A stretch of DNA of 11,902 nt from Bacteroidota bacterium (GTDB taxonomy: Bacteria > Bacteroidota > Bacteroidia > Flavobacteriales > Flavobacteriaceae), in contig CANINJ010000028.1 of assembly GCA_947468985.1 (NCBI GenBank), forward strand, positions 1 to 11,902, in the 5' to 3' direction. Shown one piece after another: positions 10,413 to 10,844 of the stretch. A model generated the notes under the pieces. The model was not told the DNA's origin and searched no databases. It saw nothing but the letters and a program-made list of their open reading frames with translations. A program made the translations under genes and the position numbers. The first letter of the stretch is position 1. The number at the start of each line of letters is the position of its first letter.

Positions 10413-10448
10413 TTTTAAGCATTAGGCAGAAGGTTTTAAGCTTTAGGC
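10413..10448 (+). repeat. Left repeat pair of the groES-groEL insert
   Basis: Two 15-bp direct copies, TTTTAAGCATTAGGC (10413-10427) and TTTTAAGCTTTAGGC (10434-10448), differ at one base and start exactly 21 bp apart. The block lies between the stop of the four-helix-bundle gene and the ATG of groEL. It is an inverted match to the right-hand block at 10813-10844. Confidence 0.85.
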
Positions 10449-10842
10449 TTGTTCCTTACTGCTGAATTAGTATTTGTTTTAATTTATAAATTTTACTTTT
10501 TATTGTGTTGATTTCTTTTTCTAAGATTTCAAATGTTTCTGTGTCGATATAATTTAAATCTCTTGAAAGAATAATCAAGTATTCTGTTTCGCTTGCAGAA
10601 CCCAAGGCTATATTAAGATATTGATTAAATTCTTTATCTGAATTTCTGCCACAACCTTCACTAATATTTGTCGGAATTGAAGAAGAAGCTCTTCTTATTT
10701 GACTTGTAATTCCATACATTTCATCTTTAGGAAATAAAGATGTATTAGAATAAATCTTCAGTGTAAATGCGTGACTTAATTGCCAAATTTCATATTTTTT
10801 AAAATCTCTCATTTGCTTAAAGCATATAGCCTATTGCTTAAA
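10414..10842. mobile_element. Putative inverted-repeat-bounded IVS-like cassette
   Basis: A 429-bp unit consisting of one four-helix-bundle gene between inverted repeats. Read inward, the left end (10414-10441) and the right end (10842-10815, minus strand) agree at 22 of 28 positions. The heptamer TTTAAGC is perfect at both ends of each arm, ATTAGGC and AATAGGC follow it, and only the central seven bases diverge. It sits exactly between the groES stop and the groEL start without damaging either. No transposase is encoded and no clear target duplication is seen. Calling it mobile is inference, supported by the known IVS elements of 23S rRNA that carry the same protein family within stem-forming flanks. 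Confidence 0.5.
10456..10812 (-). CDS. Four-helix-bundle protein, 23S rRNA IVS family
   Basis: A 118-residue helical protein of the four-helix-bundle family first found as the reading frame in 23S rRNA intervening sequences (also called S23 protein). Conserved blocks are plain: YEIWQLSHAFTLKIY (7-21), FPKDEMYGITSQIRRASSSIP (27-47), TNISEGCGR (48-56), FNQYLNIALGSASETEYLI (62-80) and a last helix (about 95-117) rich in Lys. Family members whose structure I recall are five-fold rings with a basic surface, but no function is established; nucleic-acid binding is a common guess. The length is normal and the frame intact, so it is probably expressed. Its location is odd: between groES and groEL, on their strand, bracketed by inverted repeats. 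The ATG at 10812 lies one base outside the inner repeat copy. It is presumably translated from the groESL message. Such genes occur scattered in Bacteroidota genomes and are not normally part of this operon. Confidence 0.88.
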   Translation of the reverse strand: MRDFKKYEIWQLSHAFTLKIYSNTSLFPKDEMYGITSQIRRASSSIPTNISEGCGRNSDKEFNQYLNIALGSASETEYLIILSRDLNYIDTETFEILEKEINTIKSKIYKLKQILIQQ

Positions 10843-10844
10843 GC
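10813..10844 (-). repeat. Right repeat pair of the groES-groEL insert
   Basis: TTGCTTAAAGC occurs at 10813-10823 and again at 10834-10844 (plus-strand reading), exactly 21 bp apart, the same period as on the left side. The reverse complement matches the left block. The last base of the outer copy is the third base of the groES TAG stop codon on the minus strand, so the repeat abuts the groES coding end. Confidence 0.85.

What the first reader, a model, noticed from the sequence alone, without database searches (positions are those of the whole stretch)
10413..10844. Inverted-repeat-bounded IVS-type gene inserted between groES and groEL
groES and groEL are normally adjacent in one operon. Here a four-helix-bundle gene of the 23S rRNA intervening-sequence family separates them. 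Its flanks are inverted copies of one another (22 of 28 positions over 10414-10441 versus 10842-10815). Within each flank the TTTAAGC core is repeated at exactly 21 bp, two helical turns, so paired sites face the same side of the DNA. The insert begins at the groES stop and ends 5 bp before the groEL start. This looks like a precise small cassette, possibly mobilised in trans. Repeats and spacing are seen; mobility and the binding role of the encoded protein are inferred.
Basis: partly seen in the sequence, partly recalled or inferred. Interest (0 to 1): 0.78.

Follow-up and report, generated by a model that had tools for sequence, protein, structure and literature searches.

The report
Heptamer-armed mobile gene inside chaperonin operon
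Between the two chaperonin genes sits a tiny gene cassette whose ends are made of 7-letter DNA repeats, one of a large and little-noticed family of cassettes in bacteria that have slipped, mostly in reading direction, into operons and, at least once, into a ribosomal RNA gene.

Summary
In detail: a PF05635 (23S-rRNA-IVS type) four-helix-bundle gene lies between groES and groEL, with inverted flanks (22/28; 0 of 2000 shuffles as good). The 21-bp spacing is 3 x 7: both arms are degenerate heptamer arrays. This is a family trait. In 102 copies from relatives, a copy's two flanks are inverted relatives of each other (mean score 33.7 vs 16.9 swapped; 359 ordinary genes 18.0; 16 copies look direct instead), with a 7-bp period absent from ordinary intergenic DNA. 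The heptamer tends to follow the protein subfamily to new sites. Cyanobacterial plasmids show empty/filled pairs at six junctions, and one element type (78-82% DNA identity over ~416 bp only) at three. A 23S rRNA copy has a heptamer downstream arm. In Bacteroidota 130 of 144 copies lie in sense between codirectional genes, one antisense. At groES-groEL the insertion is old: it spans Flavobacteriales genera and largely follows groEL, yet 20 of 23 parsed same-genus genomes are empty. Best reading: an IVS-type mobile cassette whose heptamer arms are ends recognised by its own protein; mobility chemistry unknown, RNA-level selection on the arms not clearly supported. New variant of a known kind.

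The parts
8780..10408 (-). groEL (downstream host gene of the insertion)
   Evidence: ORF and sequence; MAK-type groEL start behind the gene in relatives
10413..10448 (-). downstream (3') arm: five degenerate heptamers, read on the gene strand GCCTAAA GCTTAAA ACCTTCT GCCTAAT GCTTAAA
   Evidence: lag-7 21 of 40
10456..10812 (-). four-helix-bundle (S23/IVP-type) protein gene, 118 aa
   Evidence: PF05635, TIGR02436 over cut-off; solved relatives 2gsc and 2rld; conserved Q38, R41, S45, N49, E52, E75
10813..10843 (-). upstream (5') arm directly after the groES stop: heptamers (G)CTTTAA GCAATAG GCTATAT GCTTTAA GCAA
   Evidence: lag-7 16 of 25
10844..11119 (-). groES (upstream host gene); its stop abuts the 5' arm

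Best explanation
The insert is one copy of a very common small mobile cassette of the 23S-rRNA-IVS type: [heptamer array] - S23/IVP four-helix-bundle gene - [inverted heptamer array], about 410-500 bp, mostly inserted in sense between genes of an operon. The heptamer arrays are the ends of the element and are most likely the sites that the encoded, probably pentameric, protein recognises (inferred: the heptamer type tends to follow the protein subfamily to new sites). No promoter beyond chance was found by a sigma-70 scan (a model that does not fit Bacteroidota well), so it probably rides on the host transcript; it may also move by way of that transcript, because almost all Bacteroidota copies point in the direction of transcription (inferred; loss of antisense copies is not excluded). 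At groES-groEL the copy is an old resident, inherited mostly with groEL and absent from many relatives. Shown: anatomy, family-wide heptamer arms, insertion units with empty sites, sense bias, protein-heptamer coupling. Inferred: binding, the mobility chemistry, any RNA step. The stated confidence is for 'mobile IVS-type cassette with heptamer ends'; for the transcript route I would give about 0.35.
For: Own-flank inverted score 33.7 vs 16.9 swapped, 82 of 102 copies in the top 5% (102 of the 105 matches, three broken ones not fetched). Ordinary ORFs 18.0, 9 of 359 at 26 or more against 78 of 102 copies. Lag-7 identity 0.44/0.43 against about 0.30; 0.299 in 223 ordinary intergenic regions; 0.36-0.45 in 50 copies from the wider phylum; 0.50/0.52 in 11 cyanobacterial plasmid copies. 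Arrays by period in 150 copies: 104 upstream and 91 downstream at period 7, next 28 and 29 at period 8. Empty/filled plasmid pairs at sites A-F; an element unit of 416-419 bp at 78-82% identity at three sites. A copy inside 23S rRNA with a heptamer downstream arm, seen by eye. Sense 130, antisense 1, convergent 7, divergent 6 of 144. Heptamer tends to follow the protein at different sites.
Against: No catalytic activity is known to me for PF05635. No fixed target-site duplication: site B looks like GTAA, C lost a few bases, D-F unclear. 20 of 102 copies are not in the top 5% of swapped pairs, 16 of 102 have flanks more alike in direct than in inverted orientation and 18 of 102 reach 26 in neither; direct scores too exceed swapped ones on average (22.6 vs 16.8). 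Only 12 of 30 and 8 of 20 in the wider phylum pass 26. The groE copy of G022 scores only 14. At this locus the history is mainly vertical. A test for arms kept alike after divergence was negative (31.6 vs 29.6, p = 0.23). On cyanobacterial plasmids 2 of 11 copies are antisense. Several protein pairs above 65% identity at different sites have unlike arms (for example L094/L106, L032/L115, L219/L238).
Confidence: 0.75

Rival explanations
1. RNA-level IVS: the arms are kept as an RNA stem so that RNase III cuts the cassette out of the groES-groEL mRNA, as in 23S rRNA; the RNA stem is what selection preserves.
For: Canonical IVS has the same gene, inverted ends and heptamers and is excised by RNase III (PMC4990558, passages). 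The window transcript folds better than 100 shuffles, z -4.1, outer arms paired in the MFE. Azospirillum copy in 23S rRNA. With lenient arm alignments G.U leads A.C 209 to 186 where swapped pairs give 6673 to 7231, p 0.056.
Against: With strict alignments of 78 loci G.U does not lead: 64 G.U vs 83 A.C (p 0.14 against even, 0.28 against the swapped rate). 16 of 102 copies have direct rather than inverted flanks.
Confidence: 0.3
2. Domesticated regulator: the protein binds the arms and tunes groEL relative to groES (and other operons where it sits); the arms are operators.
For: The gene is present at groES-groEL across many genera of Flavobacteriales with a groEL-like history; six polar positions (Q38, R41, S45, N49, E52, E75) are 92-100% conserved.
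Against: Many same-genus genomes lack it: 20 of 23 parsed; at least 27 of 299 carry it (capped list, the rest not read one by one). The family sits in unrelated operons (gene names by eye or annotation).
Confidence: 0.15
3. Non-autonomous DNA element moved in trans by an unrelated transposase (for example Y1/RAYT or another IS), the four-helix gene being cargo.
For: No nuclease motif known to me in the protein; gene-less copies with heptamer arms exist (Brasilonema L280, Nostoc ATCC 53789 L274).
Against: Two genomes with the family have no PF01797 match (G004, G034; other transposases not searched); heptamer type tends to follow the four-helix protein; the sense bias is not what a DNA transposon would give by itself.
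Confidence: 0.2
4. The arms are ordinary slippage-generated low-complexity DNA that happens to lie in operon gaps; no element.
For: Heptamer repeats are said to be over-represented among simple repeats in many bacteria (PMC4692102, passages); array length varies by whole units between related plasmids (14 bp and 7 bp).
Against: The sampled ordinary intergenic DNA of two of these genomes has no 7-bp period and few ordinary genes have such flanks; empty sites.
Confidence: 0.03

Closest known systems
23S rRNA intervening sequence (IVS) with S23p ORF (Coxiella, Leptospira; PMC4990558, abstract and passages)
   Same: Same protein family, ~430-bp size, terminal inverted repeats around the gene, heptameric direct repeats just before the ATG (Coxiella), sporadic presence.
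   Different: Not in rRNA but between two protein genes; both arms are heptamer arrays; RNase III excision untested; family found in 157 of 198 sampled Bacteroidota genomes (where those copies sit was read for a part only).
Heptanucleotide repeats: GGGAATC in Xanthomonas/Nostoc (PMC4692102, abstract and passages), TAACTGA in Beggiatoaceae, Cyanobacteria and Bacteroidetes (PMC4679880, abstract and passages), cyanobacterial STRRs (recalled)
   Same: 7-bp unit, few copies, intergenic, TAACTGA often just before start codons, GGGAATC often as inverted pairs (70 and 75 in two Xanthomonas genomes).
   Different: A find for S23, four helix and intervening returned 0 in both papers; here the arrays frame such a gene and tend to match its subfamily.
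Avd of diversity-generating retroelements
   Same: Distant homologue by sequence and structure alignment (PMC10053308, passage).
   Different: NF033474 scores 15.9 against a cut-off of 80; no reverse transcriptase seen by eye among the window's ORFs.
MITE / RAYT-REP systems
   Same: Small inverted-repeat units, gene-less derivatives.
   Different: No Y1 transposase match in two of ten genomes that carry the family; heptamer arrays instead of one palindrome; strong sense orientation.

Membership tests
PF05635 / TIGR02436 four-helix-bundle (S23/IVP) protein | Profile score above the curated cut-off | tested here: met
   131.9 vs 33.8 bits; 126.6 vs 24 bits
23S rRNA IVS | Location inside a 23S (or 16S) rRNA helix | tested here: not met
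   Between groES and groEL; no Rfam match in the window at gathering scores
23S rRNA IVS | Terminal inverted repeats able to form a stem around the ORF | tested here: met
   22 of 28; outer arms paired in MFE, z -4.1
23S rRNA IVS | Excision from the transcript by RNase III | not testable with these tools
   needs RNA work
23S rRNA IVS | Heptameric repeats before the S23p start (described for Coxiella) | tested here: met
   Lag-7 16 of 25 in the 5' arm
Transposon with terminal inverted repeats | Unit insertion with empty sites | tested here: met
   For relatives: plasmid sites A-F; for this locus only species-level empty sites
Transposon with terminal inverted repeats | Fixed-length target-site duplication | tested here: not met
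   Variable or none across sites B-F
DGR (Avd) | Avd equivalog score over cut-off | tested here: not met
   15.9 vs 80 bits
RAYT/REP | Dependence on a Y1 transposase in the genome | tested here: not met
   8 of 10 genomes have PF01797; G004 and G034 have no match but carry four-helix copies
Heptanucleotide (STRR-like) repeats | Tandem 7-bp unit | tested here: met

The most novel reading that the evidence does not exclude
PF05635 proteins are the mobility factors of a vast class of ~430-bp autonomous elements whose ends are heptamer arrays read by the cognate pentamer (one heptamer per subunit would give 35 nt; median array length found is 33 and 31 nt), which enter genomes by way of transcripts, hence in sense, in operons and in rRNA. 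The unexplained heptanucleotide repeats of Cyanobacteria, Xanthomonas, Beggiatoaceae and Bacteroidetes would then be ends, scars or gene-less copies of this class.
Probability: 0.3. Interest if true: 0.9.

Novelty: new variant of a known kind. Interest (0 to 1): 0.72.

Why it matters
It joins three loose ends: the unknown function of the S23/IVP protein, the origin of heptanucleotide repeats in bacteria, and PF05635 genes that turn up beside cas and other operons. It predicts a binding code (protein subfamily to heptamer) that can be tested with purified proteins and short DNA or RNA. It also warns that guilt-by-association for PF05635, for example with CRISPR operons, may reflect insertion rather than function.

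Tried and rejected
Rejected: 21 bp as two helical turns (it is 3 x 7). Not clearly supported: selection for an RNA stem; strict counts 64 G.U vs 83 A.C, lenient counts 209 vs 186 with swapped pairs at 6673 vs 7231, p 0.056. Not supported: my own idea that the two arms are kept alike after divergence; within-element vs cross-species arm scores 31.6 vs 29.6 in 40 elements of 11 sets (p 0.23) and 30.1 vs 28.3 in 23 groE copies; one of the 40, L020, was put in a wrong set (its downstream gene differs). Rejected as required mover: Y1/RAYT; the strongest control ORF belonged to a REP/RAYT locus. Inconclusive: whether genomes without PF05635 lack period-7 arrays; 4 arrays in 74 kb of intergenic DNA of PF05635-bearing genomes vs 0 in 28.5 kb of five genomes without, too little, and I did not check what lies beside those four. 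No match in phages. Rfam: nothing in the window at gathering scores. No promoter beyond chance: 2 found, 2.7 expected, none ahead of the gene. Literature: searches listed no paper that I could see linking four-helix/S23 genes outside rRNA with heptamer arms; the Coxiella IVS paper has both in one rRNA element; only listings and the passages named were seen, and most subscription papers and preprints are not held. Limits: neighbour calls rest on a plain ORF finder (8 of 152 dropped, small ORFs may mislead); the 20 wider-phylum copies were picked by me from the listed top matches for distinct families; pairs are not independent (many are groE x leuC-leuD) and at least one 'different-site' pair (L347/L354) is the same site on a cut contig; gene names such as fadA, leuC, leuD, gmk, nadD were given by eye from translations (recalled), not by a search.

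Full report
What is there. On the minus strand the window reads groES - 31 bp - four-helix gene - 47 bp - groEL. The gene is a clear PF05635/TIGR02436 member with solved relatives 2gsc and 2rld. The two gaps are inverted relatives (22 of 28; 0 of 2000 shuffles of the 120-bp flanks, 1 of 2000 for the bare gaps). Both are built of degenerate heptamers: GCTTTAA GCAATAG GCTATAT GCTTTAA on one side, GCCTAAA GCTTAAA ACCTTCT GCCTAAT GCTTAAA on the other.

The same anatomy is general. One search found 105 matches in 30 of 40 related genomes. For the 102 fetched, own upstream flank against reverse-complemented downstream flank scores 33.7 on average, swapped partners 16.9 (sd 4.3); 82 of 102 lie in the top 5%. 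359 ordinary ORFs from 400 kb of two of these genomes average 18.0 and 9 reach 26, a level reached by 78 of 102 copies. Lag analysis peaks at 7, 14, 21, 28 on both sides (0.44/0.43 at lag 7, baseline about 0.30) but not inside the gene nor in 223 ordinary intergenic regions (0.299). In 150 copies, arrays of period 7 occur 104 times upstream and 91 downstream; the next period, 8, gives 28 and 29; median array length is 33 and 31 nt. The misses: 20 of 102 copies are outside the top 5%, among them the groE copy of G022 (score 14); in 16 of 102 the flanks match better in direct than in inverted orientation, and 18 of 102 reach 26 in neither. Direct scores are also above swapped ones on average (22.6 vs 16.8), partly because some flanks hold arrays of both orientations (by eye).

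Breadth. 157 of 198 sampled Bacteroidota genomes carry the family, up to 16 copies each. Fifty further copies keep the 7-bp period; 12 of 30 and 8 of 20 pass score 26 against 3.3% and 0.8% of swapped pairs. On plasmids the relatives are mostly cyanobacterial (31 records); the eleven examined have the strongest period of all (0.50/0.52), though L233 shows no array by eye and L232 has its two arrays in direct orientation. Two lie inside cas operons (cas6|cas4, cas10|cmr3). In Azospirillum the gene is inside a 23S rRNA gene and its downstream arm is again a heptamer array by eye. Together with the heptamers described before the S23p gene of the Coxiella IVS (PMC4990558, passages), this suggests that rRNA IVSs and operon copies are one kind of element.

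Insertion. Cyanobacterial plasmids, 88-98% identical in the matched parts, give empty sites. Site B...AAAAAGTAA|TTAACAAATAAAT|ATG empty (two plasmids read), filled in Trichormus and Scytonema, whose arrays differ by 14 bp, two units; Nostoc C052 has a truncated copy and Brasilonema a gene-less hairpin with similar arms. Site A: filled in two Nostoc plasmids whose downstream arrays differ by 7 bp, empty in two, gene-less with heptamer arms in a fifth. Sites C, D, E, F: empty gaps of 2-3 nt or overlapping stop/start, filled in a relative. At C the element sits within the end of the upstream gene, supplies its stop codon, and a few target bases are missing. The copies at B, C and D are the same element type: 78-82% DNA identity over 416-419 bp, ending with the arms. 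There is no constant target duplication.

Orientation. Of 152 Bacteroidota copies 144 had both neighbours called: 130 in sense between codirectional genes, 1 antisense between codirectional genes, 7 convergent, 6 divergent. Background pairs are 490 codirectional, 103 convergent, 97 divergent. Sense against antisense is far from even (p about 1e-37; copies at one site in several species are not independent). On the eleven cyanobacterial plasmids the annotated neighbours give 8 sense, 2 antisense and 1 convergent. Either insertion follows transcription, or antisense copies are lost quickly, for instance through transcriptional polarity. The data do not separate these.

Protein and heptamer travel together. 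Among 23,721 pairs at different sites (229 loci) arm similarity is flat at about 13 below 45% protein identity, 14.1 at 45-55% (2,696 pairs), 20.2 at 55-65% (662 pairs) and 24.2 above 65% (31 pairs; 32% of them reach 24). Examples: window copy against a leuC|leuD copy, L391 (65% identity, score 33); L020 against L022, L069 and L076 (80-85%, 33.5-36.5); L234 against L235 (72%, 45.5); a Flavobacteriales copy (L019) against the cyanobacterial L237 (65%, 21.5) with the same AGAAGTC-type unit. Counter-examples: L094/L106 (77%, 14.5), L032/L115 (75%, 13), L219/L238 (69%, 13). Many pairs are not independent, but several separate site changes are involved. This is the main ground for thinking that the protein reads the heptamers.

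History of this copy. At least 27 of 299 same-genus genomes have it at groES-groEL (capped list; one of them, L263, gave no intact ORF and one, L267, was not parsed), 20 of 23 parsed same-genus genomes are empty (gap 11-99 bp). Of 80 named relatives (the best 80 of 165), 63 were scored as groE by rule and four more (L354, L359, L371, L404) are groE by eye, over many Flavobacteriales genera; ten belong to a sister group at a leuC|leuD junction (names by eye), eight of them not labelled Flavobacteriales; three lie elsewhere. Distances follow groEL (Mantel r 0.80, p 0.001, 59 loci; 2 of 11 supported splits conflict). So this is an old insertion, mainly inherited, often lost, or exchanged together with groEL.

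Mechanism. A Xanthomonas relative is a pentamer of four-helix bundles (PMC4990558 passage; reference title in PMC10053308), and the family resembles Avd (PMC10053308, passage). Q38, R41, S45, N49, E52 and E75 are 92-100% conserved in 144 copies, as for an active site or a fixed binding surface. Strict arm alignments show no G.U excess (64 vs 83); lenient ones lean slightly to G.U (209 vs 186, p 0.056 against swapped pairs), so an RNA-stem role is neither shown nor excluded; the RNA can form the stem (z -4.1). A sigma-70 scan finds no promoter beyond chance. I commit to: protein-recognised heptamer ends, element mobile as a unit, transcript-directed entry possible but unproven.

Verdict.

Noticed in passing
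L232 1501-1860; L236 1492-1848: Four-helix genes inserted between cas6 and cas4 and between cas10 and cmr3 on cyanobacterial plasmids; may explain reported PF05635-CRISPR association as insertion.
   Followed up: partly
L154 10450-11780: Y1 (RAYT-like) gene framed by several REP-like hairpins (CCTGCAAGGTTTTTAAAACCTTGTAGG) in G022.
   Followed up: partly
L005 1460-1520 / L245: In G014, the closest relative (98% protein identity), the start region of the four-helix gene appears frameshifted; may be decay or assembly error.
   Followed up: no
L280 1251-1390; L274 1063-1324: Gene-less hairpins with heptamer arms at the same junctions as full elements: MITE-like derivatives.
   Followed up: partly
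L246-L270 groES-groEL gaps: Larger Flavobacterium copies (gap 476-614 bp) carry extra heptamer hairpins before the gene or repeats of the gene's 3' end plus arm behind it, as if small units had inserted repeatedly.
   Followed up: no
fadA|acyl-CoA dehydrogenase junction (names by eye): L003, L033, L130 vs L021, L026, L027, L028, L081, L082, L084: The same operon junction holds members of two different four-helix subfamilies in different species: repeated use or replacement at one site.
   Followed up: partly
L232, L031, L067, L071, L078 flanks: Copies whose two heptamer arrays run in the same direction instead of inverted; not explained by the simple inverted-end picture.
   Followed up: no
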